Shown here piece by piece: positions 31,406-63,155 of a stretch of DNA of 64,000 bases. This DNA comes from Streptomyces sp. 846.5. Lineage in GTDB: Bacteria > Actinomycetota > Actinomycetes > Streptomycetales > Streptomycetaceae. The translations under genes and the position numbers were made by a program. Numbering within the stretch: the stretch's first letter is position 1; every line of letters begins with the position of its first letter. The stretch spans positions 5,442,001 to 5,506,000 of the forward strand of contig NZ_SOBN01000001.1 in the NCBI RefSeq assembly GCF_004365705.1, in the 5' to 3' direction. The notes under the pieces were generated by a model that worked only from the letters and a program-made list of their open reading frames with translations, had not been told where the DNA came from and did no database searches.

Positions 31406-31461
31406 CCGCGACCGCGATTGTTCCCGCCGGGTCACGTCGCTGGAGCGGTCCGGGGGGACGG

Positions 31462-31492
31462 CGGTCGTGGCCACCCCCGGTGGCCACGACCG
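31462..31492 (+). terminator. Strong hairpin terminator
   Basis: Perfect 14-base arms (CGGTCGTGGCCACC and its complement) flank a CCC loop 57 bases after the sigma factor stop. The remainder of the 303-base gap up to 31709 shows no gene and should hold the promoter of the AfsR-type regulator. Confidence 0.7.
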
Positions 31493-31708
31493 AGCCGCAG
31501 CTGTGGCCACCCCCGTGGACCACCGCCGGGCGCCGAACCGCCGGAGCGGTTCGGCCGGGTGGGGGGACGCGTGTCGGGGGTCGGGACCAAGATCACCGAC
31601 TCGGCCCGTGCGCCACCAGCACGCCCTTTCCGTGGGCATTACACTGCCACCCAGCCGTGGCGTCTGTGTGGCGTCAGTAGGGGTGGGACCGACGATAGAG
31701 AATCTCCG

Positions 31709-45458: not shown

Positions 45459-45579
45459 GGCCGTACCATAGGCGGCAATTTTCCGCAAATGTACGATTCG
45501 ATGCCGGTCTGTACGGCGCGTCGCCTCCGTCGGCCGCCCGAATTGGCCGGTCGCCGCATGGAAATGTCAGGATGCTTGC

Positions 45580-49266: not shown

Positions 49267-49268
49267 CC

Positions 49269-49664
49269 ATGGGTGCCCCGGCCGTCTCCAGGGTCGCCGT
49301 GACCTCCGCCGCGGAGGAGGTGTTGCGGAAGCTCTACGCGGCCAACGGCCCGCTGATGTTCCACCAGTCGGGCGGCTGCTGCGACGGGAGCTCCCCGATG
49401 TGCTACGTGGAGGGCGAGTTCAGGACGGGCGCGTCCGACGTGCTGCTCGCCTCGCTGCCGGTCGCGGACGTGCCCGAGCCGGTCACCTTCTGGATGTCCA
49501 AGGACCAGTTCGAGCGCTGGCGGCACACCCATCTCACCGTGGACGTGGTCCCCGGGCGCGGCGGCGGGTTCTCGCTGGAGGCGCCGGAGGGCGTGCGTTT
49601 CCTGATCCGCTCACGGCTGCTGACACCCGAGGAGACGAAGGTGCTGGACGGCAGCAGCGAGTGA
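49269..49664 (+). CDS. DUF779 family protein
   Basis: The 131-residue protein begins at ATG 49269, two bases after the aldehyde dehydrogenase stop. Family marks are FHQSGGCCDGSSPMCYVEGE, with adjacent cysteines and a third Cys that could bind metal, then FWMSKDQFERWRHTHLTVDV and PGRGGGFSLEAPEGVRFLIR. DUF779 genes nearly always follow ExaC-type dehydrogenases; the biochemical role is not established. Confidence 0.88.
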   Translation: MGAPAVSRVAVTSAAEEVLRKLYAANGPLMFHQSGGCCDGSSPMCYVEGEFRTGASDVLLASLPVADVPEPVTFWMSKDQFERWRHTHLTVDVVPGRGGGFSLEAPEGVRFLIRSRLLTPEETKVLDGSSE

Positions 49665-49742
49665 GCCGCCGTACGGCCGGGGTCCGCTGTCAGGGGCAGG
49701 CTCCGGCCGTACGGTTCGTTCGTTCTCCCGTCGGTCCGGCGG

Positions 49743-50447
49743 TCAGCCGACCTGCGGGGCGATCTGATCGGCGATCAGCTCCAGGTGGTCCAGGTCCTCC
49801 AGGTCCAGGATCTGGAAGTAGAAGCGGCTGCTGCCCGCCTCGGCGTACTGGCCGATCCGGTCCACCACCTCGGCCGGGGTCCCGGCCAGGCCGTTGGCCT
49901 TGAGCTCGGCCACCTCGCGGCCGATCGCGGCCGCGCGTCGGGCCACCTCGGCGTCGTCCTTGCCGACGCAGGCCACCAGCGCGTTGGAGTACACCATGTC
50001 GTCGGCCGCGCGTGCGCGCTCCGCGCAGGCGGCGCGGACCCGGCCGATCTGGGCGCGGGTGTCCTCGACCGAGACGAACGGCAGGTTGAACTCGGTGGCG
50101 AAGCGCGCCGCGAGGGCCGGCAGCCGGGTCGGCCCCATGCCGCCGACCAGCACCGGGACCCGGCTCTGCACCGGCTTGGGCAGCGCGGGGGAGTCCTTCA
50201 GCTGGTAGTAGGTGCCGTCGTAGTCGAAGGTGTCGCCGACCTTGGTCTCCCACAGGCCGGTGACGATCGCCAGCTGCTCCTCGAAGCGGTCGATCCGCTT
50301 GGACGGGAAGGGGATGCCGTAGGCGGTGTGTTCCTCCTCGTACCAGGCCGCACCCAGGCCCAGCTCGACCCGGCCGCCGCTCATCGCGTCCACCTGGGCG
50401 ACCTGGATGGCCAGCACCCCGGGCAGCCGGAAGGTGCCGGCAGCCAT
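49743..50447 (-). pseudogene. F420-dependent LLM-class oxidoreductase, N-terminus cut off by the integrative element
   Basis: The remaining 234 codons begin MAAGTFRLPGVLAIQ and continue VDAMSGGRVELGLGAAWYEE, EEHTAYGIPFPSKRIDRFEE and VPVLVGGMGPTRLPALAARF to the natural C-terminus. Typical members have about 75 more residues at the front, with the first beta-strand and the F420-binding residues of the barrel start. Here that part is absent: upstream lies the integrase gene on the other strand. The ATG at 50447 is an accidental start in element sequence. The other gene half should lie at the element's right end, outside the window. A barrel without its first strands is unlikely to function. Confidence 0.8.
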
Positions 50448-50455
50448 TCCTTGTT
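50440..50455. repeat. Left attachment junction of the integrative element
   Basis: Similarity of the LLM oxidoreductase frame stops around GTGCCGGCAGCCAT (about 50435-50448), and the integrase gene begins at 50471. For a serine integrase the crossover site is short, so attL must lie in this interval. The exact core needs the right-hand junction, which is beyond the window. Confidence 0.55.
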
Positions 50456-50470
50456 AATACACTTCGAGGT

Positions 50471-51907
50471 ATGAGAGAACCGAAGCGCACATCGGCCAGC
50501 GTGGCAGGTGAACAAGCCGCGATCTACTGCCGGATCTCCAAGGCAGATGAGGACGATCAGACTGGGGTGGACCGGCAGGAAGTCATCTGCCGGAGCATCG
50601 CCCATCGTCTGGGACTCATAGTCAACCCGGATCATGTGTTCGTGGACAACAGTCGATCGGCGTGGAGCCGGACGCGAAAGCGCCCCGGATGGGACAAGTT
50701 GCTAGTCGGCGCGCAGGGCCGGGACTTCCGTCACATCATCGCGTACCACCCGGACCGCCTCATGCGACAGCCGAAAGACCTTGAAGAGCTGTTGAAAACG
50801 GCTGACGATCACCAGATCACCTTGCACGGCGAGGCGAACCGCCGGAATCTCTCCGACCCTGATGATCGATTCATTCTGCGGATCGAGGTTGCCCATGCCT
50901 GCCGCTCATCTGATGACACTTCACGGCGGCTCAAGGATGCCCTGATGGACCGCGTGGACACAGGCAAGCCCCACACTGGCAGGCGACGCTACGGGTACAC
51001 GGCCGACGGTTTGACCATCGTCGAGGAAGAAGCGGAGACGGTACGCGAGGTGTTTGACCGCTACCTCAAAGGTGAGGGACCCGTGCCAATCGCGCGTGAC
51101 CTTTCCAGGCGCGGCATCAAGACCTCACTCGGCAAGTCGTGGACGGCGGGGACAGTCCGGGCGCTTCTCGACTCTCGCCACGTCGCCAGTATCCGTGTGC
51201 ACCAGGGCGAAGAGGTGGGCCTCGGTAACTGGCCCGCGATCATCGACGCAGGTACGTGGCAGGAGACGCGCACAATGCGTGAGTATCGGTCGGCTTGGCA
51301 TTCAGAGCATGTGGGACGACGCCGGTTCTACCTGCTGCGCGGTCTGACGATGTGTAAGCGGTGCGGCACGTTGATGTCCGGCACCTCACTCGGCAACACG
51401 TTCCAGTACCAGTGCACCCGGAAGCATCGGAACGACAACCAGAGGTGCGTGCGCAAGATCCTCGCGCTCCCCCTTGAGAAGTTTGTGCAGGATGCTGCAA
51501 TCGACCTCCTGGGCCGACTCTCAGTCTCTGGGCAGTTCGAGACTAACGTACTGTCGGATCGGGTAAGTCAAGCCGTCGAAGCCGACGAACAGCAGCTGGC
51601 AGAGCTTAACGAGATGTGGACAGGGAAAGAGATCACGACGGCGGAGTACCGGAAGATGCGGAAGGAGATCCAGTCCCGCATTTCCAAGGCCCAGAGTCGG
51701 AGAGTGGTTCGCCCCATGAAACTACTCGAAGGTCTCACCGGGCCAAACGCCCGCATAGCGTGGCTCGCCGACGACATGACGGACGAGCGGCGCAACGCCG
51801 TGCTGCGATTCCTGTTCTCCGCAGTGATCATCGGCGAAGCAACCACTCCCAAAGGTGTTTTTGACTGGACCCGCATTGATATCGACCAGAACCCACTGAC
51901 CAGTTAG
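50471..51907 (+). CDS. Large serine recombinase (integrase)
   Basis: The 478-residue integrase starts at ATG 50471. The catalytic Ser is in AAIYCRISKADEDDQTGVD (about residue 23). The resolvase core includes AYHPDRLMRQPKDLEELL with its essential Arg. The recombinase domain contains TGRRRYGYTADGLTIVEEEA and IARDLSRRGIKTSLGKSWTA. A zinc ribbon has LTMCKRCGTLMSG and YQCTRKHRNDNQRCVRK. A coiled-coil region follows (DEQQLAELNEMWTGKEITTA). It integrates the element by attP x attB recombination without divided gene partners. It lies directly at the junction, reading inward, and its stop overlaps that of a convergent small ORF. Confidence 0.92.
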   Translation: MREPKRTSASVAGEQAAIYCRISKADEDDQTGVDRQEVICRSIAHRLGLIVNPDHVFVDNSRSAWSRTRKRPGWDKLLVGAQGRDFRHIIAYHPDRLMRQPKDLEELLKTADDHQITLHGEANRRNLSDPDDRFILRIEVAHACRSSDDTSRRLKDALMDRVDTGKPHTGRRRYGYTADGLTIVEEEAETVREVFDRYLKGEGPVPIARDLSRRGIKTSLGKSWTAGTVRALLDSRHVASIRVHQGEEVGLGNWPAIIDAGTWQETRTMREYRSAWHSEHVGRRRFYLLRGLTMCKRCGTLMSGTSLGNTFQYQCTRKHRNDNQRCVRKILALPLEKFVQDAAIDLLGRLSVSGQFETNVLSDRVSQAVEADEQQLAELNEMWTGKEITTAEYRKMRKEIQSRISKAQSRRVVRPMKLLEGLTGPNARIAWLADDMTDERRNAVLRFLFSAVIIGEATTPKGVFDWTRIDIDQNPLTS

Positions 51908-52053
51908 CGAGCAGACGGCGCGCGGCCGGATCCCATCAACTCTGCCAGCCGCGCGGCGCTCCGGGGGCCGATCGTTGTGCGGAAACCAGCGCAGATTCGT
52001 GCCAACGCAAGAGCCCGATCCTCCGCTGAACGATCTATTTCCGCTGTCGTCAG
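51904..52053 (-). CDS. Small ORF closing the rep operon; candidate directionality factor
   Basis: This 49-codon frame reads LTTAEIDRSAEDRALALARI, CAGFRTTIGPRSAARLAEL, then MGSGRAPSAR. There is no ATG, GTG or TTG; the only start is CTG 52053, which overlaps the RepSA stop (CTGA). Its own stop overlaps the integrase stop by two bases, so the frame exactly fills the gap. In tyrosine-integrase elements the gene after repSA is often xis. Here, with a serine integrase, a recombination directionality factor is possible but unproven. Confidence 0.35.
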   Translation of the reverse strand: MTTAEIDRSAEDRALALARICAGFRTTIGPRSAARLAELMGSGRAPSAR

Positions 52054-53522
52054 GAGATCACCCCCGCGCCTTCCCGGCCGAGTGCTTCGCGGGCTGTCTC
52101 GCGGTTCAGGGCGATGTCTTCCGCGATGCCTGCGGCGATGAGTGCTTCGGCGGGGGTATGGCCGGAGCCGACGTACCACCAGTGGGCTTCGGTGGTGGTG
52201 CCGTCGTCCCAGTCGGCGTACAGCGCCCGGGCGTCGGCGGCGCGGGCGTGTTCGGCGCGGACGGCGCGCAGTTGGCGGTAGGTGGTGGAGTAGGCGCGGG
52301 TCTTGGTGAGGCAGTGGCCCCGGTAGGCCAGCATGTGAGTCCAGGCGCGCAGCCGCAGGTGTTCCAGTTCCGGCAGCCGGTCGAGTCGCCAGGCTGTTGT
52401 GAGCAGGGCCCGCACGTGGTCGGTGACGTGGAGGGCGCGGATCTCGGCTGCTGAGGTGATGCGGCGGTCGACGGCTCCGGCTGCTTCGACGGATTTGGTG
52501 GTGTACTTCGCGACGTATGCGGCTACCTGTTCATCGGTGATCCGGGTGCCGTCGCCGTCGGTGAGGGGGTGGGCGTCGAGTTGGTCCCCGAAGCGCAGCC
52601 GTCGATCCCCGTAGGCGCTGGAGGCGGGTGCGGGGAGCGCGACGGCGGCAGCGGCGGTGCGCACGCATTCCGCCAGTAGTTCGGCTGTGGCCCAGGCCGG
52701 CGGTTGGGTGCCGGGGCCGTCGGGTCCGTCGAGGCGGATCACGGCGTGGAAGTGGATGGCGCCGCGCTTTTGGTACTCGGCGACTTTCGCGGCTGCCACG
52801 CGGACCAGGGTGCGTACGGCGGTGCGGCCTACGCCGACGCGGGCGGCGAGGTGGTGGTACAGGTTGTCCCGGAACGCTTTCCATAGCGCGTTGGCGTGGG
52901 CGTTCCACAGGATGTGGCCGACGTAGTCGTAGCAGTGCGGGCACAGCGGTTGTCCGATGGCCGGGTCGTCGTCGGGATGGGTATGGCCGCAGCCGCGAGG
53001 GGTGCCGTGCGGGCAGCTGCCGGACCGGGTGGGGTGGCAGGTGTCGGCGCGGTGGACGGAGCCGAAGCCGGGTGCGGTCAGGGTGACGAACAGTCGGGGG
53101 TGGGTTCGGACGGTCTCGGGGATGCCTTTGCCGCCGACCAGTCCGGCCCGGACCAGGTGGAAGGTGTCGCCCTGGTGTTCGCGCGAGCAGGGGGCGCAGC
53201 GGCTTGCGCGGCGGTTGCGGCAGCGTACGGCCAGGCGTCCGCCGGGCTCAGCGGTGGTGCTGTAGTGGTGCAGGACGTGACCGGTGGCGGTGTCGATGGT
53301 GGTGGTGTGTCCGGCGAGGTAGATCGGGTGGGCGCATCCAGCGGTGGCCTGGATCTGCTGCAGCCAGCGGTTCAGGTCGGGCATCTGGCCCAGGCGCACG
53401 AAGTCGCGGTCTTCCTCGCTCAGGGTGCGTAGGAAGGTGTCGTGGTCCAGGTAGGCGCGGCGTGCGTGCGGGTCGGTGTAGGGGTTGCCGGGCACGGGGG
53501 CCGGGTCGCGGGGGGCGTGCAA
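52050..53522 (-). CDS. repSA: RepSA-type replication initiator
   Basis: The 490-residue rolling-circle initiator is of the actinomycete element type. Cys-rich segments come early (CRNRRASRCAPC and LCPHCYDYVGHILWN). The metal-binding HUH-like motif is RGAIHFHAVIRLDG (about residues 254-266). The catalytic Tyr region is EQVAAYVAKYTTKSVE (Tyr 336 and 340). It nicks a double-strand origin to replicate the excised element and possibly to help its maintenance. It lies in the leftward operon after traB and two small genes, the usual AICE order. Confidence 0.85.
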   Translation of the reverse strand: MHAPRDPAPVPGNPYTDPHARRAYLDHDTFLRTLSEEDRDFVRLGQMPDLNRWLQQIQATAGCAHPIYLAGHTTTIDTATGHVLHHYSTTAEPGGRLAVRCRNRRASRCAPCSREHQGDTFHLVRAGLVGGKGIPETVRTHPRLFVTLTAPGFGSVHRADTCHPTRSGSCPHGTPRGCGHTHPDDDPAIGQPLCPHCYDYVGHILWNAHANALWKAFRDNLYHHLAARVGVGRTAVRTLVRVAAAKVAEYQKRGAIHFHAVIRLDGPDGPGTQPPAWATAELLAECVRTAAAAVALPAPASSAYGDRRLRFGDQLDAHPLTDGDGTRITDEQVAAYVAKYTTKSVEAAGAVDRRITSAAEIRALHVTDHVRALLTTAWRLDRLPELEHLRLRAWTHMLAYRGHCLTKTRAYSTTYRQLRAVRAEHARAADARALYADWDDGTTTEAHWWYVGSGHTPAEALIAAGIAEDIALNRETAREALGREGAGVIS

Positions 53523-53800: not shown

Positions 53801-53983
53801 TCAGTTGAGGCTGCTGGCGAGCGAGGAGACGAATGCGGCGATCGGGTCGGACAGGTGGGTGCGGTCCAGGTAGAAGCCGAGCAGGCCGACCAGGACGACC
53901 TGCCACCAGCGCAGCTCACCCGAGCGCAGCAGCAGGAAGACGACGAGTCCCAGCAGGGCGACCATGGGCAGGGCCACGCTCAC
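53801..53983 (-). CDS. SpdB-like small membrane protein
   Basis: The 60-residue protein starts at GTG 53983, overlapping the TraB stop. It has two hydrophobic helices (VALPMVALLGLVVFLLL and WWQVVLVGLLGFYL) joined by a short RSGELR turn, with a polar C-terminus. Spread (spd) proteins of this size follow traB in Streptomyces elements and help intramycelial distribution of transferred DNA. Translational coupling to TraB supports that role. Confidence 0.65.
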   Translation of the reverse strand: MSVALPMVALLGLVVFLLLRSGELRWWQVVLVGLLGFYLDRTHLSDPIAAFVSSLASSLN

Positions 53984-55377
53984 GGCGCGTACACCCCCTG
54001 CTCGGTGTCCGTGGCTGCGCCCAATTGCCAGAGGTAGGGCGCGAGTTGGGCGTACTTTGTGGCGGTCTTTCGGGCGTGTTCCGGGGTGGTGAGCACGGAC
54101 CGGGCACGGGTCCAGTGGCCGTCGTCGCCGAAGGTGATGGCCACCCCCGCTTCCGTCTGGGTGATCTGCTGGGCGGCGGTCAGGGCGTCCTTGTCCAGGT
54201 CCCCGAGGGCCATCTCAGCGGTGCCGGGGTCATTCACGCGGTGGCAGATCCTTCCGGCGAGCTGGGCCCGCAGGGCGGTGACTCCTGGGCCAAGGTCCGA
54301 GCCCACGCGCTGACCGGCGATCACCAGGTGCACCCCGAGGGCTGCTCCGAGTTGGGCCAGCCGCAGCAGCGCCGTGGAGACCTCCGCCACCTCGTCCTTT
54401 TCGCCTCGGGTGGCCATCAGGTACAGCTCTGCCACCTCGTCCACGAGCACGATGACCGGCACCGGCCGGAGCTGGTCGGGCAGGTCCCAGATGGAGCGCG
54501 CACTGTGGGAGCGGCACAGGGCCATCCGCACGGTGGTGATCTCCACCAGTCGCCCGAGCAGGGCAGCGGCTTCGGTGCGGTTGGTGGCCAGTGCGGACAG
54601 GCGCGGTTCGAACAGGGACAGTTCCATCCCGCCCTTCAGGTCGATGCCCACCAGGGCGACCCGTTGCCGGGCCCAGGCTTCGACCAGGGAGGCGAGCAGG
54701 GTGGATTTGCCGGAGCGGGTAGCGCCGACGATCAGCCAGTGCGGCACCTTCCGCAGGTCGATCACCCACCCCGCACCGTCCTCTCGCTGGCCGACGGCTG
54801 CGGCGAGCAACCGTCCGCCGAACGTGAACGGCGCGGTGGGCGCGGCCAGCGGGTCCCATGCAGTGGCGGTCAGCCGTACGAATCCGCGCTGATGGGAGAC
54901 CACGCGGACGGCGAAGACCCGCCAGGCGTGGGCGAGCGCTTCGGCTGCCGCCGCGAACTGGTCGGGCACCTGGCCCGGGTGCAGTTTCACCACGACGTCC
55001 AAGCCCCCACGGCGGGGCCGGGGAAGGCCCAGCCGTGGCGGGATCGGCTTCAGCGGCTTGCCCTTGACCACCAGGTCCCCCAGCAGGCCCTGAGCGGGTC
55101 GGCGGGCCACAGCGAGATCCAGCAGGATCGTGAGCTTGCGCCAGGTGAACAGCGCCCGCAGGGCCGTCACCGGGAAACCCAGCAGGTACCACCACGCCAG
55201 CGGGTACCGCCGCCGCAGCAGCGGGCCGCCCACGGCGAGCGCAAGCGCCAGTCCGCAGACCAGGACCAGCAGGACGCCGGGCACCGCCGAGTGGTGGGCC
55301 AGCGCCGGCTGTTGCAGGTAGGCACCCGGACCGATGATCCCCCCGGACGTCGGGGCAGGGGTGGGGGTGCGGCTCAT
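53980..55377 (-). CDS. TraB/TraSA-type FtsK/SpoIIIE DNA translocase
   Basis: The 465-residue protein transfers double-stranded DNA between hyphae. Two N-terminal membrane helices (about 34-50 and 59-75) anchor it. The FtsK-type motor has Walker A LIVGATRSGKSTLLASLVEA (about 215-234), LVGIDLKGGMELSLFE and Walker B VIVLVDEVAELYLMATRGEK. A late segment (LGVHLVIAGQRVGSDLGPGV) matches the translocase core, and the C-terminus may carry the DNA-recognition winged helix. It overlaps the 75-residue gene upstream and spdB downstream. It is the main conjugation protein of the element. Confidence 0.88.
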   Translation of the reverse strand: MSRTPTPAPTSGGIIGPGAYLQQPALAHHSAVPGVLLVLVCGLALALAVGGPLLRRRYPLAWWYLLGFPVTALRALFTWRKLTILLDLAVARRPAQGLLGDLVVKGKPLKPIPPRLGLPRPRRGGLDVVVKLHPGQVPDQFAAAAEALAHAWRVFAVRVVSHQRGFVRLTATAWDPLAAPTAPFTFGGRLLAAAVGQREDGAGWVIDLRKVPHWLIVGATRSGKSTLLASLVEAWARQRVALVGIDLKGGMELSLFEPRLSALATNRTEAAALLGRLVEITTVRMALCRSHSARSIWDLPDQLRPVPVIVLVDEVAELYLMATRGEKDEVAEVSTALLRLAQLGAALGVHLVIAGQRVGSDLGPGVTALRAQLAGRICHRVNDPGTAEMALGDLDKDALTAAQQITQTEAGVAITFGDDGHWTRARSVLTTPEHARKTATKYAQLAPYLWQLGAATDTEQGVYAP

Positions 55378-55601
55378 CGGGCCTCACCGCCCGGGAGCGT
55401 CCACGGGGCCGCGAGGCCCTCGGCTATCGCGTTGGCGACCTCAACGGACAGGTCGTCCGCCAGGCTTGCCACCTCCACCGCCCCGTTGACGATGTTGTCG
55501 TAGAGCTGCTTCATCACCGGAAGGTCGGGGCCCTCGTGCAGTTCATCGGCCAGCCAGCCGAGTTCGTGCATCATCGTGCGCAGTCCGCGCCAGTCCCTCA
55601 C
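55374..55601 (-). CDS. Small hypothetical protein of the transfer operon
   Basis: I do not recognise this 75-residue acidic helical protein (MRDWRGLRTMMHELGWLADE, DLPVMKQLYDNIVNGAVEVA). The start GTG 55601 overlaps the preceding stop (GTGA), and its own stop overlaps the TraB ATG. The strict coupling on both sides shows it is a true gene. It may regulate or assist TraB. Confidence 0.6.
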   Translation of the reverse strand: MRDWRGLRTMMHELGWLADELHEGPDLPVMKQLYDNIVNGAVEVASLADDLSVEVANAIAEGLAAPWTLPGGEAR

Positions 55602-55948
55602 CTGGCCTCACCCGCCTTCACCGGCGCGGCCGGGAGCGAGGGGATGATCTGCTGCGCGCGGAAGCTGATGCCGTGACGGTCGCCCATGTCCCAGGCGAGC
55701 GCCTCCAGGCCGACAAGCTGAACCTGTCCGCCCTCGATCAGGCCCTTGGGTTCACCACTGACGCTGACCTCGATCACCGAGGCCCGCCGCCGACCGGCCC
55801 CGCGCACGGCGATGCCGACCACGTACACCGGGTTGCCGTCCCGGTCCTTCTTGATCTCTCCCGTCTCTTGGCTGACGAGCTTCAGCTCCGGCGGGACGAT
55901 CACGGTCGCCCGGCCGAGCTGTGCGACATCCACAGGGATGTTCTGCAT
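55598..55948 (-). CDS. SCO3933-family regulatory protein
   Basis: The 116-residue protein starts at ATG 55948 after AAGGAG. The sequence MQNIPVDVAQLGRATVIVP, then VSQETGEIKKDRDGNPVYVV and QVQLVGLEALAWDMGDRHGI, is a hallmark of actinomycete integrative elements, where it opens the traB operon. The fold is beta-rich and its exact role is not known; it is often labelled regulatory. It is the first gene of the leftward operon, under the promoter region shared with the GntR-type gene. Confidence 0.78.
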   Translation of the reverse strand: MQNIPVDVAQLGRATVIVPPELKLVSQETGEIKKDRDGNPVYVVGIAVRGAGRRRASVIEVSVSGEPKGLIEGGQVQLVGLEALAWDMGDRHGISFRAQQIIPSLPAAPVKAGEAR

Positions 55949-56007
55949 GGAACGAACCACTCCTTCATCGGGGTTGCCAGAGGGAAGCCTTAGCCTCCCT
56001 CTGTCCT

Positions 56008-56081
56008 CACTCGTCCTTACGAGTGCAATCCCGAGTGTGCGCCTCTTGACGTACAGACGCAAGCACTTATGCTGACGAGTG
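56008..56081. promoter_or_regulatory. Shared control region of GntR gene and transfer operon
   Basis: The palindrome CACTCGTCCTTACGAGTG (56008-56025) and a further ACGAGTG at 56075-56081 give three copies of one half-site. TTGACG (56046-56051) and TATGCT (56068-56073), 16 bases apart, form a strong promoter reading toward the GntR gene; the last half-site directly follows its -10 box. This matches KorSA-type control, where the GntR protein silences transfer and its own gene. The assignment of sites to this regulator is inferred. Confidence 0.65.
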
Positions 56082-56190
56082 AGGAACGATGAGCGACGAC
56101 AGCATGCCCGACCAGGGCAGACGATCTCGAAAATGCGATCGAAGTCGATGCGGGCGGGCCCGCTCACCCGCCCATGAGGGGCGAACAGCC

Positions 56191-56982
56191 ATGGCGATCA
56201 TTCGCAACGAAGCGCTGTACAAGCAGGTAGCAGCCGAGATCAGAGACGCGATCTACGCGGGTGAGTACCCCCCCGGCCGGCCGCTCCCCTCCGAGACCGA
56301 CCTCATGGCCTCCTACAACGTCTCACGCCCCACGGTGCGTCAGGCCGTCAGCATGCTCAGGGCCGAGGGACTCCTAGACGTGATCCACGGCAAGGGCTCC
56401 TTCGTCCGCTCCGTCCAGGCCAGCGGCGGCGACATCGCCCCCCTTGAGCGCACGATCACCAAGAGCGGCCAGCGCTACATCCTCCCGGCCGAGGACTGGG
56501 CCGAAGCCGAACCGCCCGCGATCTACCGCGCCCACACCGACCGCACCACCGCACCGCTCCTCGCCATGGACCCCGACGAAGCACTGTTCGCGTGTGACCG
56601 ACTGCTCGTCCACCAAGCCACCGGCACCCGGGCACTGCACCGGATACTGCTCCCCATGGCCAGCGTGGAGAACACACCCCTGGCCGACGCCCCCGACACT
56701 CCCCCCGCGCAGGCATACGCGATCCTGGCCACCGCCGGACACAAGCTGACATGGCGCGAGACCGTCCGCACCCGCCTGCCGCAACCCGACGAACGCACCA
56801 CCCTCCAACTCCCCGAAGCCACCCCTATCCTTGTCGCCTACCGCACCACCTGCGACGCCGACGACCAGAACCGACCACTGATCCTCGAAGAAACCCGCAT
56901 CGGCGGCGACCGAGGCGAACTCACCTACACCATCCACGCCGAGATCCCCAAGCGTGGTAACCCCGGGAAGTCGGCCCACTGA
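56191..56982 (+). CDS. GntR-family (KorSA-like) transcriptional regulator
   Basis: The 263-residue regulator starts at ATG 56191 (MAIIRNEALYKQVAAEIRDA). The winged helix (about 5-75) includes GRPLPSETDLMASYNVSRPT, VRQAVSMLRAEGLLDVIHGK and GSFVRS. The C-terminal UTRA-like ligand domain holds CDRLLVHQATGTRALHRIL and WRETVRTRLPQPDERTTL. In pSAM2-type elements a GntR protein (KorSA) represses the activator and transfer genes; position and divergent operators fit that role. The leader from the promoter at 56046-56073 is about 110 bases. Confidence 0.83.
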   Translation: MAIIRNEALYKQVAAEIRDAIYAGEYPPGRPLPSETDLMASYNVSRPTVRQAVSMLRAEGLLDVIHGKGSFVRSVQASGGDIAPLERTITKSGQRYILPAEDWAEAEPPAIYRAHTDRTTAPLLAMDPDEALFACDRLLVHQATGTRALHRILLPMASVENTPLADAPDTPPAQAYAILATAGHKLTWRETVRTRLPQPDERTTLQLPEATPILVAYRTTCDADDQNRPLILEETRIGGDRGELTYTIHAEIPKRGNPGKSAH

Positions 56983-57069: not shown

Positions 57070-57459
57070 TCAGGAACTTGCCGTGATGTCGTTGTTGTCG
57101 ATCTTGCCGCCCTGGTCGGCGTGTTGCGTGGTATCGGCTCCATCGGCCTTGACCTTGTTCCGGGTGATGCTGCTGCCGTGATCCGCTTTCAGGGTCGCGG
57201 TGGCGTCGCCCTGGGCATCGACCCGGTTCCCGCGCACCTCTGCATCGTTGAGCGCCGTGACGTCGACCCGGGTCCGTGAAGCCACAGCGGGTGCAGCGCG
57301 ATTGTCGAGGTAGACCAGTACCAGCCACGCACCCCCCAGCACCACTAGCCCGGCTAGAACCGGCCAGCTGAAGCCACTGGTGATCACGCTCGTGAGCGCC
57401 CCTACTACGGCCCCCAACGCGACGGACACCACCGCCCGCACCGGTCGACTGATAGCCAT
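57070..57459 (-). CDS. Two-TM protein with repeated beta-motif tail
   Basis: The 129-residue protein has two membrane helices (VRAVVSVALGAVVGALTSVI and WPVLAGLVVLGGAWLVLVYL), then a tail with three similar short motifs: AEVRGNRVDA, SSITRNKVKA and GKIDNNDITA, separated by Gly/Asp-rich turns. The pattern (hydrophobic-x-x-Asn-x-hydrophobic-x-Ala) suggests a stacked beta structure. The gene is divergent from the STAND-TPR gene with only about 100 bases between, so they are probably co-regulated. It could be the membrane effector partner of that protein, or an unrelated element gene. Confidence 0.65.
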   Translation of the reverse strand: MAISRPVRAVVSVALGAVVGALTSVITSGFSWPVLAGLVVLGGAWLVLVYLDNRAAPAVASRTRVDVTALNDAEVRGNRVDAQGDATATLKADHGSSITRNKVKADGADTTQHADQGGKIDNNDITASS

Positions 57460-57557
57460 CGCCCATCCCCCTCCATCACGCCGCTATTCCTCACAGGTTA
57501 GGGCGAGTTGCGCTTCCGCGTGGGAGCATCATGCAACGGGGAGCAGCAGGGGGGACG

Positions 57558-60500
57558 ATGCCACAGCAGGGCAAGTTCACGGACCGCGAAGAGGCACTCA
57601 GTGCGTTCGATGCACTGATAGCGCCGGACTCCCCTCATCGAGTCCTGGCCATCCATGGGTTGGCCGGGCAGGGGAAGACAACGTTTCTGAGGCACCTGAG
57701 GGACACTCGCCCGCACTGCGTTCTGGCGGACCTTGACGTCTCGGAGTCTTCCACCGGAGACCTGCTGCGGGTCAGTTTCGGAGTCATCGCGCGTGAAGTC
57801 GCCCTCTGGTCTCCCTGGTGGGCACGCCGCTACCGCCTGCGCCGCTTTCAACACGCCAGCATCCACGCCGCCGAGAACTTCGCGGCAACCGCGCCGTCCA
57901 GCCAGATCCTGATCCAGGCCACCCACGGCGGCATCACCAGCGACAACACGGTCACCGTCACGGGAGCCGACAGCCGGTCGGCCTACCGCGAATCCCTCAC
58001 CCAAGCACTCATCGACCTCGCCCGCGGAGCCGGACGCAAACCCTGCACACTGCTCATCGACACCACCGAAAGACTGCACCTCCTGGAGGAGTCCACTACA
58101 GAGCGCGGCAGCAGCGGATGGCTCACGACCAGTTTCCTGCCGCGTCTGACCGGGGCCCTGCCCGAACTGCGGGTCGTCTTGGCAGGGCGCGAACCGCTCG
58201 CACTGCCCCAGGCCTTGACCGTGGCTGACCCGGTCGAACTCACCGAGTGGCAGGACCGTCACACCCACGGCTATCTCGTATCGGCGGGCATCCGTGATGC
58301 CGCGATCGTCGCGCTGATCCAGCGGACCTGTCTGGGCGTGCCCGTGTGGGTGGCCATGGCGGCACAAGTCCTCGCCCAAACCCAGCAGACCCCAACACCG
58401 CTCACCGCCGAGCAACTCGCCCGGGAGATCAACGACCGGCCGGCCCAAGAATGGCTCCCCCGGCAATTCCTGACCCGCCTGCCCGAGGCCGAACAAGAAC
58501 GCATCCAAGCCGCCGCCGTCCTGCGCACAGTCACCGAAGACGCCCTCCGCAGCCTGCTACCCGAAGCAGCGTTCAGGAGCTCCTGGTTTCACTCCTTCGC
58601 CCAGTACTCCTTCATTCGCACGCGCCTGACGCTGGACGGAAGCACCGAACGCTACATCCACCAACTGGTCCGCACCGCACTGTTGGTCTACCTACATCAA
58701 GATCGCCGCACCTACACGGACGAACTCCACCACCGGGCCGCCGACCACTACCGACGCATCGACAACTTCCTAGAGGAGGCATACCACCGCTTCGCCATCG
58801 GCGACGCCTCCCTTGTGCCGGAGTGGAAAACACGCCTCGCCGACGCCGTCGAACGAACGGACCAAGCTGGCGCGCGCGCTCTGTGCGACATCGTCACCGC
58901 ACCCGAACTCATTCGTCGCGTCATCGATCGAATCCCCGACGTAGCAGCCCACGCAGTCCAACAGGCCGCCCGGGCATCAATGAACCTGACGCAACGACGA
59001 CTCTGGCTCACCCAGGCCCTGGAGATCTACCGCACCCTGGAGGACCGGCGCGGCCAGGCCGACACCCTGCGATCCCTCGGCGAAACCGCCCGGATGCGCG
59101 ACGAGTTGGTGGAGTCGAGAGACCTGCTCACCCAGGCCCTGGAGATCTACCGCACCCTGGAGGACCGGTCCGGTCAGGCCGACACCCTGCGATCCCTCGG
59201 CAACACCGCCCGGATGCGCGACGAGTGGGTGGAGGCGAGAGACCTGCTCACCCAGGCCCTGGAGATCTACCGCACCCTGGAGGACCGGTCCGGCCAGGCC
59301 GACACCCTGCAATCCCTCGGCGAAACCGCCCGGATGCGCGACGAGTTGGTGGAGGCGAGAGACCTGCTCACCCAGGCCCTGGAGATCTACCGCACCCTGG
59401 AGGACCGGTCCGGCCAGGCCAACACCCTGCGATCCCTCGGCAACACCGCCCGGATGCGCGATGAGTTGGTGGAGTCGAGAGACCTGCTCACCCAGGCCCT
59501 GGAGATCTACCGCACCCTGGAGGACCGGTTCGGCCAGGCCAACACCCTGCGATCCCTCGGCAACACCGCCCGGATGCGCGACGAGTGGGTGGAGGCGAGA
59601 GACCTGCTCACCCAGGCCCTGGAGATCTACCGCACCCTGGAGGACCGGCGCGGCCAGGCCAACACCCTGCAATCCCTCGGCAACACCGCCCGGATGCGCG
59701 ACGAGTTGGTGGAGTCGAGAGACCTGCTCACCCAGGCCCTGGAGATCTACCGCACCCTGGAGGACAGGTCCGGTCAGGCCGACACCCTGCAATCCCTCGG
59801 CAACACCGCCCGGATGCGCGACGAGTGGGTGGAGGCGAGAGACCTGCTCACCCAGGCCCTGGAGATCTACCGCACCCTGGAGGACAGGTCCGGCCAGGCC
59901 GACACCCTGCAATCCCTCGGCGAAACCGCCCGGATGCGCGACGAGTTGGTGGAGGCGAGAGACCTGCTCACCCAGGCCCTGGAGATCTACCGCACCCTGG
60001 AGGACCGGCGCGGCCAGGCCGACACCCTGCAATCCCTCGGCAACACCGCCCGGATGCGCGACGAGTTGGTGGAGGCGAGAGACCTGCTCACCCAGGCCCT
60101 GGAGATCTACCGCACCCTGGAGGACCGGTTCGGCCAGGCCTACATCCTGCAATCCCTCGGCGAAACCGCCCAGCAGCGCGATGAGTTGGTGGAGGCGAGA
60201 GACCTGCTCACCCAGGCCCTGGAGATCTACCGCACCCTGGAGGACCGGCGCGGCCAGGCCAACACCCTGCGATCCCTCGGCAACACCGCCCGGATGCGCA
60301 ACGAGGTGGTGGAGTCGACGGACCTCCTCATCCAGGCCCTGGAGATCTCCCGCACCCTGGAGGACCGGTTCGGCCAGGCCTACACCCTGCAAGCCCTCGG
60401 CAACACCGCCCACCAGCGCGGCCGTCTCGACGCTGCCGCGATCAACTTGACCCATGCGCAAGCGTTCTTTCGACAGCTTGGCGACCGTTCGGGTGATGCG

Positions 60501-60962
60501 TCTTGCCTGTGCTTGCTCGGAAAGGTCGCGGCGAGGCGCGGAGACACCGAAAGAGCTAACAGACAACTCACCCAGGCCCTGGAGATCTATCGCACCCTGG
60601 AGGACCGGCGCGGCCAGGCCGACACCCTGCAAGCCCTCGGCGAAACCGCCCTCCAGCGAGGTGAGCTGGTGGAGGCGAGGGACCTGCTCACCCAGGCCCT
60701 GGAGATCTACCGCATCCTGGAGAACCGGCTAGGCCAGGCCAACACCCTGTATGAACTCGGCAGTACTGCCCGAAAGGGCCGTGAGTTCAATCTCGCGGTC
60801 GACCTATGCGAGCAGGCGCTACCGCTGTACGAGATCGCAGCCCCGTGGATGGTCAAGCACGTACAGACGTTGCTGTGCGAGCTACGCACGCTCATAGCCG
60901 CGCAAGAAGTCGAGGAGGGCTTTGGACCCACGACCCCACCAGACGCACAGGCCACTGCCTGA
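57558..60962 (+). CDS. STAND-like P-loop NTPase with fifteen near-identical TPR repeats
   Basis: The 1134-residue protein starts at ATG 57558, with a G-rich ribosome site just upstream; ATG 57531 is an alternative. The NTPase (about 1-300) has Walker A AIHGLAGQGKTTFLRHLR, Walker B PCTLLIDTTERL and VVLAGREPLALPQA as sensor. A helical section (about 300-480) resembles the winged-helix/arm of STAND proteins. From about 484 to 1083 run fifteen 40-residue TPRs without a single indel, about eleven nearly identical. The C-terminus ends with a short helical cap. STAND-TPR proteins act as ligand-triggered switches in signalling or phage defence. The repeats point to recent expansion. The partner may be the divergent membrane protein. 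Confidence 0.8.
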   Translation: MPQQGKFTDREEALSAFDALIAPDSPHRVLAIHGLAGQGKTTFLRHLRDTRPHCVLADLDVSESSTGDLLRVSFGVIAREVALWSPWWARRYRLRRFQHASIHAAENFAATAPSSQILIQATHGGITSDNTVTVTGADSRSAYRESLTQALIDLARGAGRKPCTLLIDTTERLHLLEESTTERGSSGWLTTSFLPRLTGALPELRVVLAGREPLALPQALTVADPVELTEWQDRHTHGYLVSAGIRDAAIVALIQRTCLGVPVWVAMAAQVLAQTQQTPTPLTAEQLAREINDRPAQEWLPRQFLTRLPEAEQERIQAAAVLRTVTEDALRSLLPEAAFRSSWFHSFAQYSFIRTRLTLDGSTERYIHQLVRTALLVYLHQDRRTYTDELHHRAADHYRRIDNFLEEAYHRFAIGDASLVPEWKTRLADAVERTDQAGARALCDIVTAPELIRRVIDRIPDVAAHAVQQAARASMNLTQRRLWLTQALEIYRTLEDRRGQADTLRSLGETARMRDELVESRDLLTQALEIYRTLEDRSGQADTLRSLGNTARMRDEWVEARDLLTQALEIYRTLEDRSGQADTLQSLGETARMRDELVEARDLLTQALEIYRTLEDRSGQANTLRSLGNTARMRDELVESRDLLTQALEIYRTLEDRFGQANTLRSLGNTARMRDEWVEARDLLTQALEIYRTLEDRRGQANTLQSLGNTARMRDELVESRDLLTQALEIYRTLEDRSGQADTLQSLGNTARMRDEWVEARDLLTQALEIYRTLEDRSGQADTLQSLGETARMRDELVEARDLLTQALEIYRTLEDRRGQADTLQSLGNTARMRDELVEARDLLTQALEIYRTLEDRFGQAYILQSLGETAQQRDELVEARDLLTQALEIYRTLEDRRGQANTLRSLGNTARMRNEVVESTDLLIQALEISRTLEDRFGQAYTLQALGNTAHQRGRLDAAAINLTHAQAFFRQLGDRSGDASCLCLLGKVAARRGDTERANRQLTQALEIYRTLEDRRGQADTLQALGETALQRGELVEARDLLTQALEIYRILENRLGQANTLYELGSTARKGREFNLAVDLCEQALPLYEIAAPWMVKHVQTLLCELRTLIAAQEVEEGFGPTTPPDAQATA
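59007..60806 (+). repeat. Fifteen in-frame 120-bp tandem repeats
   Basis: Units start at 59007 and every 120 bases to 60687, in perfect register. Units 1-11 are almost identical in DNA; units 12, 13 and 15 are more diverged and 14 is intermediate. Among the similar units variation is confined to about six codons: Arg/Ser/Phe after EDR, Asp/Asn/Tyr after QA, Arg/Gln, Glu/Asn, Leu/Trp, and Ser/Ala. Trp in the fifth site always goes with Ala in the sixth. Confidence 0.95.
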
Positions 60963-61494: not shown

Positions 61495-61815
61495 TCAGGC
61501 CGCACCTTGACCGTCTTCCCCGTACTGCTGCCGGGCCTGCTCTGCCAGCTGCTCCAGCACCGTCGTCACCTTGCGGGCACCCATCTCATTGGCGACGATC
61601 CGCACCCAGCCGTTGCCCTGCGCGTCGGTGTCCGCAACCGCCCGGAATTCCCACGGCCAGATCTTCAGCCGCTTGAGCGCGGCGTTCAAGTCGTCCGCCG
61701 CGTCTTTGGCCGTCCGCCACCCAGCGGCGTAGTCCACACCGGGTATCCACGCCCACGACTGCGGATCCAGGTCCTCCGGGAACCCCTCGAACCCCTCAGA
61801 GGTTTCGTCCAACAC
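61495..61815 (-). CDS. Hypothetical acidic protein
   Basis: I do not recognise this 106-residue protein. GTG 61815 is the start. It is acidic and Trp-rich (SWAWIPGVDYAAGWRTAKDA, LKIWPWEFRAVADTD), with a helical C-terminus (KVTTVLEQLAEQARQQYGE). No membrane segment or catalytic motif is visible. It may be element cargo. Two further leftward hypothetical genes follow the same orientation to its right. Confidence 0.5.
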   Translation of the reverse strand: MLDETSEGFEGFPEDLDPQSWAWIPGVDYAAGWRTAKDAADDLNAALKRLKIWPWEFRAVADTDAQGNGWVRIVANEMGARKVTTVLEQLAEQARQQYGEDGQGAA

Positions 61816-61985
61816 CGCGCTATCAGCCCCTTCCCAGGCATCTGACGATCAGGTGCGGTGCCTGCGGGACCAGCGGGCGAGCGGACATGTCAGAGCACCC
61901 GGGTACCATCGGCACCGGGTTCACACCCACCGGACCACCCCACCGCCTCCAAGCTCAGGGGTGGTCCGGTTCCTCATCAGCCTTG

Positions 61986-62423
61986 CTACTGGGCGGCTCC
62001 TAGCCCCCCGGGGGACCAGGGGATAGGAGCCACCCGCCACGCGTGGTCAGGTGACGCACCGCCAGGCGTGGGGTCCATGGGCGCTGGGCTGGTCGGTCGG
62101 GCCGTCAGCACGTAGCGCGTGTTGTCTTCAAAGACGCTCAGCGCGTACAGCTCACCGGCCGCCAGCGCGGACATCGCCCGCTGCATCTCGTCAGCGTCGT
62201 TAAGCCACCCGAACACCGGCCGGGCATTGCCAAGATCAAGCTGATCAGCCAGATCGAGAGCGCGCCCGCGCAGCCACCGCAGCGCCAACCGGGGTGATCC
62301 GGCCGGATGCGATCCCAGCCAGAAGACCCGGTCATGCCCCGGGCACAGGGCAACGGCCTCGCACCAGTACCCGAGCCGCAGGTGCGACTCATGCAGCACG
62401 TGCACGTCATCGAGCGTCAGCAC
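61986..62423 (-). CDS. Hypothetical protein
   Basis: I do not recognise this 145-residue protein. It starts at GTG 62423 (MLTLDDVHVLHESHLRLGYW). A segment CPGHDRVFWLGSHPAGSPRL and a later AAGELYALSVFEDNTRYVLT look like a small mixed alpha/beta domain. The C-terminus is Pro-rich and probably disordered. There is no export signal. Confidence 0.5.
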   Translation of the reverse strand: MLTLDDVHVLHESHLRLGYWCEAVALCPGHDRVFWLGSHPAGSPRLALRWLRGRALDLADQLDLGNARPVFGWLNDADEMQRAMSALAAGELYALSVFEDNTRYVLTARPTSPAPMDPTPGGASPDHAWRVAPIPWSPGGLGAAQ

Positions 62424-62507
62424 GAGCGGCCCCCGAGGAGGTGCAGCGGGATGCGGCGCGACGCCGGGCCTCGATCCGTTCCGGGAAAGCCGATGGGAGA
62501 CATGTGT

Positions 62508-62963
62508 TCACATCCAACCCATGTGCTGGCTACGGAAGTTGGCCTCGCTGACGCGACCTGACAACTTCTCACGCTCGGTCGTCGAACGCACGTGCGCGGG
62601 CATCGCCTCCCACTCCTCACCGAAGCCGGAAGCAGGGCGCAAGTACAGGCGACCATCGCGCACGTCCGTCACAACGGCAGTGCGGTCCGTCCGCGTGTCA
62701 ACAACCCAGGCCCCGACTTCAGGTACCTGCGGATGCTCCCCGGCCATCGCAATCTCCCTCTCCCGCAAGGCTTCAGCTACCACCCCGCTGCCGTGCTGCC
62801 TGGCATCGAAGGCGGCAGTGAAGCTGTCCCAACCGAGCAACTCCCCACCCCCATCACGGAGCCCTTCACCGCTGATCGTGAGCCGCCATAGCATTGCCGG
62901 GCGATCCCAAACGATCTCGACCGGAGGGGAGAGTGACGGCTCCTTCCACAGAGCGGAGCTCAT
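62508..62963 (-). CDS. Hypothetical protein divergent from an XRE regulator
   Basis: The 151-residue product starts at ATG 62963 (MSSALWKEPSLSPPVEIVWD); the longer upstream frame is Arg-rich and unconserved. It contains AMLWRLTISGEGLRDGGGEL, GAWVVDTRTDRTAVVTDVRD and GRLYLRPASGFGEEWEAMPA, the last two resembling a small SH3-like barrel common in Streptomyces hypothetical proteins. It is read leftward from the same control region as the XRE gene at 63196, so that regulator may control it. Confidence 0.55.
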   Translation of the reverse strand: MSSALWKEPSLSPPVEIVWDRPAMLWRLTISGEGLRDGGGELLGWDSFTAAFDARQHGSGVVAEALREREIAMAGEHPQVPEVGAWVVDTRTDRTAVVTDVRDGRLYLRPASGFGEEWEAMPAHVRSTTEREKLSGRVSEANFRSQHMGWM

Positions 62964-63107
62964 GACGGACCTCCGCAACCACTCCACGTATCTGTCTCGA
63001 CGGCTTGCATGCGCACCAACCTGTCGCCGGTCTCCGGTTTGCCAACGACCCTGTAGGTCCCGGCTCCTCCAGGGTCCCCAACGTGAACACGATCCAGAAC
63101 GCCGAGC

Positions 63108-63155
63108 GGGGTACCCCACCGACCGAAACGGGGTACCCCTGGCCAGTTACTGGCC
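63108..63155. promoter_or_regulatory. Operator cluster before the XRE regulator
   Basis: Two copies of the perfect palindrome GGGGTACCCC lie at 63108-63117 and 63130-63139, 22 bases apart. GGCCAGTTACTGGCC, a perfect 7-base-arm inverted repeat, follows at 63141-63155. Placed between divergent genes, they are likely binding sites for the XRE protein or a partner. Confidence 0.6.

What the first reader, a model, noticed from the sequence alone, without database searches (positions are those of the whole stretch)
57558..60962. STAND-TPR protein with fifteen in-register repeats and combinatorial variation at six sites
The 120-bp units are nearly identical in DNA, yet they differ at about six codons that are reshuffled between units (for example Arg/Ser/Phe, Asp/Asn/Tyr, Leu/Trp). 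That pattern suggests rapid expansion and gene conversion of a binding surface, as in recognition proteins under diversifying selection. It is cargo on a mobile element, where defence genes often lie.
Basis: partly seen in the sequence, partly recalled or inferred. Interest (0 to 1): 0.75.

Follow-up and report, generated by a model that had tools for sequence, protein, structure and literature searches.

The report
Repeat-sensor immune pair on mobile element
A mobile element in a Streptomyces-family bacterium carries a switch protein with a long, reshuffled repeat array, next to a small membrane protein that probably acts as its weapon, much like a fungal self/non-self recognition pair.

Summary
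In detail: 57558-60962 encodes a STAND-like P-loop ATPase with fifteen 40-residue TPRs in register. Units 1-11 are 86-99% identical in DNA and six codons are reshuffled; units 12, 13 and 15 are diverged. Variation concentrates on TPR ligand-face positions, independently also in one relative. Diversifying selection is not shown (pN/pS 1.47, not significant).

A divergent gene at 57070-57459 encodes a two-helix membrane protein ending in a predicted three-rung beta-solenoid. The six other receptors of this family that I found all have such a neighbour. An effector-derived rung profile has its best match between Walker A and B in five of six non-redundant receptors; the match is clear in four relatives and weak in the window, where the reversed sequence scores as high. 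Two genomes fuse the hairpin to NB-ARC receptors. The pair is cargo of a serine-integrase AICE.

Best reading: a two-component NLR-like alarm that works like fungal NWD2/HET-S, with the receptor rung inside the ATPase. Signalling, toxicity and phage defence are inferred. New variant of a known kind.

The parts
57558..60962 (+). Receptor: STAND-like P-loop NTPase, winged-helix-like region, 15 TPRs; 1134 aa (alternative ATG at 57531)
   Evidence: Pfam TPR_12 1.7e-78, AAA_22 1.1e-4 and nSTAND6 0.0078, both below cut-off; family profile A1 hits MalT 8bob 3.7e-7 over profile positions 257-419, then NRC1 0.0057 and an ABC-F protein 0.007; AF2 model pLDDT 76, pTM 0.57: NTPase part poor, TPR blocks mostly 74-96
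57657..57683 (+). Walker A / P-loop GLAGQGKTT (aa 34-42)
   Evidence: sequence; G39 and K40 invariant in 5 of 5 aligned, window included
57906..57959 (+). Candidate single beta-rung (aa 117-134, ILIQATHGGITSDNTVTV) between Walker A and B
   Evidence: best match in aa 1-480 of a profile made from effector rungs, own partner left out, score 9.4, next 4.2, whole-sequence shuffle P=0.052. Local shuffle P=0.019, column-permuted profile P=0.09, reversed sequence 10.0. AF2 strands 115-123 and 126-134 at pLDDT below 50. Same place scores 14.0-17.6 in four relatives
58050..58070 (+). Walker B LLIDTTE (aa 165-171)
   Evidence: D168 and E171 invariant in 5 of 5 aligned
59007..60806 (+). Fifteen 120-bp units, each one 40-aa TPR
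59007..60326 (+). Eleven near-identical units with six reshuffled codons
57070..57459 (-). Partner: 129-aa two-helix membrane protein with C-terminal 3-rung beta-solenoid; putative effector
   Evidence: no Pfam, PADLOC or PHROGs match and one NCBIfam match far below cut-off (SepX/GlpR, 17.5 of 150 bits)
57298..57447 (-). Two-helix hydrophobic hairpin, aa 5-54
   Evidence: AF2 helices 5-27 and 32-54, pLDDT 49-76 per block; best 19-residue hydropathy 2.14 and 2.23; T27 invariant in 9 of 9
57076..57270 (-). Three strand triplets, aa 64-83, 87-106, 109-128 (rung period about 22-23 aa)
   Evidence: AF2 pLDDT 82-93 per block from residue 61 on; Foldseek: no significant hit, best E 0.12, several solenoid proteins among the weak ones
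57460..57557 (.). 98-bp divergent intergenic region (71 bp if the ATG at 57531 is used)
   Evidence: coordinates
50471..51907 (+). Large serine recombinase (integrase of the element)
   Evidence: Pfam Resolvase 3.6e-17, Recombinase 2.8e-14
52050..53522 (-). Replication initiator RepSA (pSAM2 type)
   Evidence: Pfam RepSA 1.2e-152; NCBIfam RepSA 504 bits, cut-off 700
53980..55377 (-). FtsK/SpoIIIE-type transfer protein
   Evidence: Pfam PF01580 2.1e-23
55598..56167 (-). SCO3933-family regulatory protein
   Evidence: NCBIfam 104 bits, cut-off 80
56089..56982 (+). GntR-family regulator
   Evidence: Pfam GntR 2.5e-21
50440..50447 (.). Left junction of the element; right junction at window-numbering about 65243-65250, outside the window (L002:1243-1250)
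   Evidence: an intact homologous locus (G005, L094) matches 48244-50447 with its 1-2202 and 65243-65510 with its 2195-2463. The two alignments overlap by 8 bp, but the element's two junctions agree at 6 of these 8, not all

Best explanation
The locus is a two-gene, NLR-like alarm carried by an actinomycete integrative and conjugative element. The STAND-TPR protein is the receptor. Its TPR superhelix binds a protein ligand through the concave face, and duplication plus gene conversion among near-identical units quickly gives new combinations of contact residues. Ligand binding opens the ATPase and makes it oligomerise. This exposes or clusters a short beta-rung that lies between Walker A and Walker B. 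The clustered rungs dock onto, or template, the three-rung beta-solenoid at the C-terminus of the divergently encoded two-helix membrane protein. That protein then assembles in the membrane and damages or arrests the cell, protecting the colony and the element from an invader (phage or competing element). Shown: both genes, the array, the pattern of variation, the pairing in relatives, rung similarity in four relatives (weak in the window), the fusions, the mobile element. Inferred: nucleotide switch, oligomerisation, rung-to-rung signalling, membrane damage, the ligand.
For: (1) All 7 receptors of this family found, the window's included (6 non-redundant; G522 is a 97% copy of G274), have the small two-helix gene next door: divergent in the window, G051 and G236; upstream on the same strand in G274/G522 and G210; directly behind the receptor in G430. 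(2) Searching the other way, with the small protein, I inspected the 8 best of 26 further matching genomes. In 5 of 8 the hairpin lies beside or inside a STAND gene: beside NB-ARC/TPR in G322, beside NACHT in G391 and G118, fused to NB-ARC/WD40 in G040 and to NB-ARC/TPR in G060. The own genome shows 16 NB-ARC and 13 NACHT matches, two places shared, candidates capped; my estimate of chance adjacency is about 1%. (3) A profile of 20 effector rungs, own partner left out, has its best match in receptor residues 1-480 between Walker A and B in 5 of 6 receptors. In G051, G236, G274 and G430 the scores are 14.0-17.6, against 0.5-4.2 for the reversed sequences. Of 20 control stretches one reached P=0.01, outside that interval. 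(4) In G322 the NB-ARC receptor has its best match at its C-terminus (profile P=0.007), sharing HSRAEDI with its neighbour. (5) AF2 gives two helices plus three strand triplets for the partner. (6) Variable TPR positions.
Against: No activity is shown. Receptor rungs are not matched to their own partner better than to others: 146 of 720 permutations score at least as high; against sliding windows of the same receptor the region ranks at or near the top in the window, G051 and G236, but 13 of 85 windows in G274, 13 of 87 in G430 and 47 of 86 in G210 do as well. In the window the reversed sequence scores 10.0 against 9.4 and 13.7, P=0.003, with the full 20-rung profile, so there the match may reflect composition. 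G210 has no profile hit. The pairwise test in G322 gives P=0.077. The two NACHT neighbours and the two fusions show no significant rung match. ATPase models stay below Pfam cut-offs and AF2 is poor there. 3 of the 8 inspected hairpin genes have no adjacent STAND gene seen (G369, G035; in G278 an NB-ARC frame lies 3.4 kb away). pN/pS is not significantly above 1.
Confidence: 0.55

Rival explanations
1. The small membrane protein is not the weapon but a tether or brake: it holds the STAND-TPR protein at the membrane through the rung contact, and the receptor acts by another route (for example as a MalT- or AfsR-like signal transducer).
For: The profile resembles MalT; divergent 'activator plus inhibitor' pairs are common (recalled); the solenoid is predicted as folded with high confidence, which fits a stable tether.
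Against: The same hairpin is fused to the N-terminus, the usual effector place, of NB-ARC/WD40 and NB-ARC/TPR proteins. Pfam shows no DNA-binding or enzymatic output domain on the receptor.
Confidence: 0.2
2. The pair serves the element: it recognises a transfer or replication protein of a competing AICE and causes exclusion, rather than phage defence.
For: It sits inside an AICE next to its GntR and SCO3933-family regulators.
Against: In the ORF lists printed for four relatives (L017-L020) I recognised no AICE genes, but those lists were filtered and not searched with profiles, so this is weak.
Confidence: 0.15
3. The array variation is neutral: slippage and gene conversion homogenise units while a few tolerant codons drift. 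No recognition arms race is involved.
For: pN-pS bootstrap spans zero. Among six relatives' loci tested only G236 has a 120-bp array (8.9 copies, 73% matches).
Against: The variable codons fall on the ligand face in two independent arrays, which correlate; pN is not below pS although the fold is constrained.
Confidence: 0.3
4. One reading: one STAND-TPR defence protein acting without the small neighbour.
For: Many bacterial STAND defence proteins are single genes (recalled).
Against: 7 of 7 receptors found have the partner, and Pfam shows no effector domain on the receptor.
Confidence: 0.1

Closest known systems
NWD2/HET-S of Podospora anserina (PMC5485727, passages)
   Same: Adjacent receptor and membrane-acting effector; receptor has one rung motif, effector several; the same domain association also occurs fused in single receptors; repeat domain C-terminal to the ATPase.
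   Different: Effector is a two-helix hairpin, not HeLo; three rungs instead of two; receptor rung inside the ATPase (or at the C-terminus in G322) instead of the very N-terminus; TPR instead of WD; no fibre formation shown.
BASS/BELL bacterial amyloid signalling pairs (Dyrka et al. 2020, not read; described in PMC7889193, PMC8086366, PMC12261475, passages)
   Same: Adjacent NLR and small membrane-helix protein sharing a short motif; filamentous actinobacteria.
   Different: BASS motifs are described at NLR N-termini and BELL C-termini; here the receptor motif is internal and the partner a two-helix hairpin with a predicted solenoid. PMC7889193 notes that RHIM-like motifs can be central, so an internal place is not without precedent. 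BASS profiles were not available to test.
Fungal NLRs with highly conserved TPR/ANK/WD repeats (PMC4986451, passages)
   Same: Near-identical repeats in a STAND protein, signs of concerted evolution, variation at the interaction face.
   Different: Fungal cases show repeat-number polymorphism and positive selection; neither is shown here.
MalT/AfsR-type and other bacterial STAND proteins (PDB match; NCBIfam matches)
   Same: ATPase plus TPR architecture.
   Different: Curated cut-offs not reached (HaaT 425 of 1125 bits, AfsR 138 of 1430); their best stretches lie in the TPRs.
AICEs such as pSAM2 (PMC3218068, passages)
   Same: RepSA, FtsK-type transfer protein, GntR regulator; AICEs with serine recombinases in protein-coding genes are already described there.
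   Different: Receptor-effector pair as cargo.

Membership tests
STAND NTPase / NLR-like receptor | P-loop, Walker B, helical/winged-helix region, then superstructure repeats | tested here: met
   G39/K40 and D168/E171 conserved in 5 of 5; profile hit to MalT 3.7e-7 and NRC1 NB-ARC 0.0057; 15 TPRs. Pfam ATPase models stay below cut-off.
STAND NTPase / NLR-like receptor | Nucleotide-dependent oligomerisation | not testable with these tools
   needs biochemistry
NWD2/HET-S-type signalling pair | Receptor and effector encoded by adjacent genes | tested here: met
   7 of 7 receptors found; that the partner is the effector is inferred
NWD2/HET-S-type signalling pair | Shared beta-rung motif in receptor and effector | tested here: inconclusive
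   clear in 4 relatives, weak in the window, no profile hit in G210; no cognate specificity
NWD2/HET-S-type signalling pair | Receptor motif at the extreme N-terminus | tested here: not met
   best match at aa 117-134, after the P-loop
NWD2/HET-S-type signalling pair | HeLo-type effector domain | tested here: not met
   two-helix hairpin; no Pfam match for the window's partner
BASS/BELL pair | Motif of one of ten BASS families | not tested
   no BASS profile library on hand
BASS/BELL pair | BELL helical-bundle domain | tested here: inconclusive
   AF2 shows two helices only; BELL itself was not compared
Highly conserved repeat NLR (fungal type) | Repeats over 85% identical over at least 100 aa | tested here: met
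   units 1-11, 440 aa, 86-99% identity, measured on DNA and not with the T-reks settings of PMC4986451
Highly conserved repeat NLR (fungal type) | Positive selection and repeat-number polymorphism | tested here: inconclusive
   pN/pS 1.47, not significant; no orthologue found to compare
AICE | Integrase, RepSA-type Rep, FtsK-type transfer protein, integration at a site | tested here: met
   no exact att core was found
Known anti-phage system (PADLOC) | Match to a defence model over its specific domain | tested here: not met
   matches in the TPRs and one weak match over the P-loop region only

The most novel reading that the evidence does not exclude
A previously undescribed class of bacterial NLR-effector pair in Streptomycetaceae. 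A two-helix membrane killer ends in a three-rung beta-solenoid, and the receptor keeps a single matching rung inside its own ATPase core, so that nucleotide exchange itself would uncover the seed. The receptor's TPR array is a self-shuffling recognition surface. This would be a convergent bacterial counterpart of the fungal NWD2/HET-S prion-like switch, carried on a conjugative element.
Probability: 0.33. Interest if true: 0.82.

Novelty: new variant of a known kind. Interest (0 to 1): 0.62.

Why it matters
It turns an orphan repeat protein into a testable two-part system: a fast-evolving sensor and a small membrane effector that may talk through a shared beta-rung. It would extend prion-like or solenoid-docking immune signalling in bacteria to receptors whose seed lies within the ATPase. 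It would also give a bacterial model, in a genetically tractable group, for how near-identical TPR arrays evolve recognition.

Tried and rejected
No close relatives: the N-terminal receptor domain gave no match in plasmids, viral contigs, a genome-contig scan with this single protein and 13 other genomes of the genus. A 394-genome family search gave 14 genomes, own included; by the later profile only G051, G236, G274 and G210 belong to the family (weakest 7.2e-175, next genome 2.5e-21). These searches scored only a few candidates per genome, so counts are lower bounds.

Cognate co-variation of rungs: tested, not significant, 146 of 720 permutations. I do not claim pair-specific motifs.

HaaT, AfsR and other NCBIfam names: rejected, scores far below cut-offs, best stretches in the TPRs. 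A holin model matches the G236 partner only below its cut-off (19.1 of 28.4 bits).

Hydropathy: my first filter (19-residue mean of at least 1.6) flagged two segments in the G236 partner and one in G274, and missed the G051 partner. Recomputed on nine partners, the helix-1 and helix-2 maxima are 1.42-2.56 and the C-terminal maxima at most 0.46. No dedicated membrane predictor was run.

Rows dropped: the 20-rung profile leaves out G236 second, G274 third, G430 first and third (gaps). Unit 13 was excluded from one pN/pS set. G522 was left out of pair tests as a near copy. Of 21 control loci one (L043) had no usable frame; the other 20 were taken by P-loop pattern, not checked one by one for the right frame. 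18 of 26 further genomes were not inspected. The neighbour lists of G278, G391, G035, G118, G322 and G369 were filtered by length and codon GC.

I first took the two junctions to share 8 bp; they agree at 6 of 8.

Foldseek of the receptor shows helical-repeat proteins, mostly TPR, and no STAND protein in the 50 rows shown. Foldseek of the small protein has no significant hit. A phylum-wide sample had the partner in 2 of 198 genomes, own included, the other weak (2.4e-9).

Literature: novelty rests on searches of an open-access library; Dyrka et al. 2020 was not read. Passages also seen: PMC7159879, PMC8195603, PMC10907252.
Full report
Observation. The open frame 57558-60962 (+) encodes 1134 residues. 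From 59007 to 60806 it is fifteen 40-residue units without indel, found by TRF as one array with period 120. Units 1-11 are 86-99% identical in DNA. Against them unit 14 is 85-90%, unit 12 72-78%, unit 15 72-75% and unit 13 48-52%. A 27-bp probe of the unit hits nothing else in the 9.03-Mb genome.

Pattern of variation. With the TPR glycine as position 8, the recurrent variable codons are TPR positions 38 (the loop in front of helix A), 2, 5, 9, 17 and 20; singletons add 3, 12, 13, 15 and 21. Magliery and Regan name 2, 5, 9, 12, 13, 33 and 34 as the most variable positions, all on the concave face. The overlap is 5 of 7 (P=0.011) for all variable codons and 3 of 7 (P=0.055) for the recurrent six. 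In the relative G236 a separate 9-unit array has its highest entropies at 9, 2, 12 and 38. Concave positions exceed the rest (P=0.0018; window P=0.0068), and the two arrays correlate (rho 0.41, P=0.008). TPRs in general vary at these positions, so this supports a binding face more than it proves selection. Twelve of fifteen site pairs show all four combinations, as unequal exchange or gene conversion would give. pN/pS is 1.47 and not significantly above 1.

Receptor. Pfam finds TPRs strongly and the ATPase only weakly. A profile of five sequences finds MalT (3.7e-7), the NB-ARC of NRC1 (0.0057) and, about as weakly, an ABC-F protein (0.007) in the PDB. Walker A and B residues are invariant among the five. 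The AF2 model gives a long TPR superhelix with good confidence and a poor ATPase part. Pfam shows no output domain.

Relatives. Of 394 genomes of the family, five (own included) match the profile at E below 1e-170; the next is 2.5e-21. A search of 391 genomes of the order added G522 and G430. None of the 13 other genomes of the window's genus matched. The gene is sparse, and counts of repeat number across orthologues were not possible.

Partner. The window has a 129-residue gene at 57070-57459 (-), divergent from the receptor with 98 bp between. Each of the other six receptors has a homologue next door. The proteins align over two hydrophobic helices and a repetitive C-terminus; M1 and T27 are invariant in 9 of 9. 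Best 19-residue hydropathy in the two helices ranges from 1.42 to 2.56 over nine proteins; in the C-terminal part it is at most 0.46. AF2 on nine sequences (pLDDT 76, pTM 0.47) predicts helices 5-27 and 32-54, then three strand triplets at 64-83, 87-106 and 109-128 with pLDDT 82-93: a small beta-solenoid with a rung of 22-23 residues. Foldseek finds nothing significant. No family library names the window's protein.

Why effector. The partner profile matched 31 of 394 genomes; 5 were already known. I inspected the 8 best of the other 26. In G040 the hairpin precedes NB-ARC (41 bits, cut-off 23.5) and WD40 in one frame; in G060 it precedes NB-ARC and TPR. In G322 the gene is divergent from an NB-ARC/TPR gene, in G391 and G118 from NACHT genes. 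In G369 and G035 no STAND neighbour was seen; in G278 an NB-ARC frame lies 3.4 kb away. The own genome shows 16 NB-ARC and 13 NACHT matches, two places shared, so 5 of 8 is, by my estimate, far above chance adjacency. The N-terminus is where NLR-type proteins usually carry effectors (established).

Shared rung. A profile of 20 effector rungs, own partner excluded, was run over residues 1-480 of six receptors. The best match starts at residues 111-120 in five, always between Walker A and B. In G051, G236, G274 and G430 forward scores of 14.0-17.6 stand against 0.5-4.2 for reversed sequences, and column-permuted profiles give P of 0.003 or less. In the window the forward score is 9.4, the reversed 10.0 and the column-permuted P 0.09; only the local shuffle (P=0.019) and the place speak for it. 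With the full profile the reversed window sequence even reached P=0.003. G210 has no hit. Of 20 control stretches one reached P=0.01, outside the interval. G322 has a match at the receptor C-terminus with HSRAEDI in common with its partner (profile P=0.007, pairwise P=0.077). The four other STAND proteins with this hairpin show no significant match. Pair-specific matching fails: 146 of 720 permutations do as well.

Element. Serine recombinase, RepSA, FtsK-type, SCO3933-family and GntR genes precede the pair. The left flank is the C-terminal part of an F420-dependent LLM oxidoreductase gene. Its N-terminal part lies at 65243-65510 in window numbering, 1.2 kb beyond the window; an intact homologue in G005 spans both. 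So a 14.8-kb AICE carries the pair. The junctions agree at 6 of 8 bp, and CCTTGTTA just inside the left end recurs inverted at the right end. Beyond the right flank the next stretch of G005 homology lies only at 79952, so a further difference of about 14 kb sits there.

Mechanism. The nearest working model is fungal NWD2/HET-S, where the receptor has one rung and the effector two, and activation clusters receptor rungs that template the effector solenoid and its membrane activity. Here the proposal is the same logic with three rungs, a two-helix membrane part, and a receptor rung within the ATPase. Steps shown: anatomy, pairing, rung similarity in four relatives, fusions, mobility. Steps inferred: nucleotide switch, oligomerisation, docking or templating, membrane damage, ligand identity. 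High AF2 confidence for the solenoid may mean that it is prefolded and docks rather than converts.

Verdict. The more important object is the receptor-partner pair, a new variant of known NLR-type two-component signalling.

Noticed in passing
window 31418-34690 (+): Long frame with an NB-ARC match (window about 32756-33280) and TPR-like C-terminus; reads like a SARP/AfsR-type regulator (name recalled).
   Followed up: no
window 38889-40595 and 41488-43254 (+): Frames that read like prolyl- and arginyl-tRNA synthetases (recalled), next to ParB- and ParA-like frames at about 43318-45488 (-); possibly second copies. Not searched.
   Followed up: no
L081:3173-7276 (-) and 7322-7708 (+): NB-ARC/TPR receptor in G322 whose C-terminus ends in rung-like sequence and shares the heptamer HSRAEDI with the divergent membrane partner.
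   Followed up: partly
L087:3330-7766 (-) and L088:1670-4228 (+): The membrane hairpin fused to NB-ARC/WD40 and NB-ARC/TPR proteins.
   Followed up: partly
L085 and L089: NACHT proteins divergent from short hairpin proteins with Gly/Val-rich tails; the NACHT proteins show no significant match to the 20-rung profile. Possibly a sister system.
   Followed up: partly
window 61495-63119 (-): Three small frames right of the receptor inside the element; no Pfam or NCBIfam match, two with weak PHROG matches of unknown function.
   Followed up: no
L080:7175-7555 (-): Hairpin plus three-rung protein in G369 without a STAND neighbour seen; the neighbouring frame matches PEP-utiliser and PPDK models.
   Followed up: partly
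L002:1511-15951 (window numbering 65511-79951): About 14 kb upstream of the split oxidoreductase gene that is absent at this place in G005; possibly a second insertion.
   Followed up: no
window 50448-50465 and L002:1228-1242: The two ends of the AICE carry CCTTGTTA and its inverse TAACAAGG.
   Followed up: no
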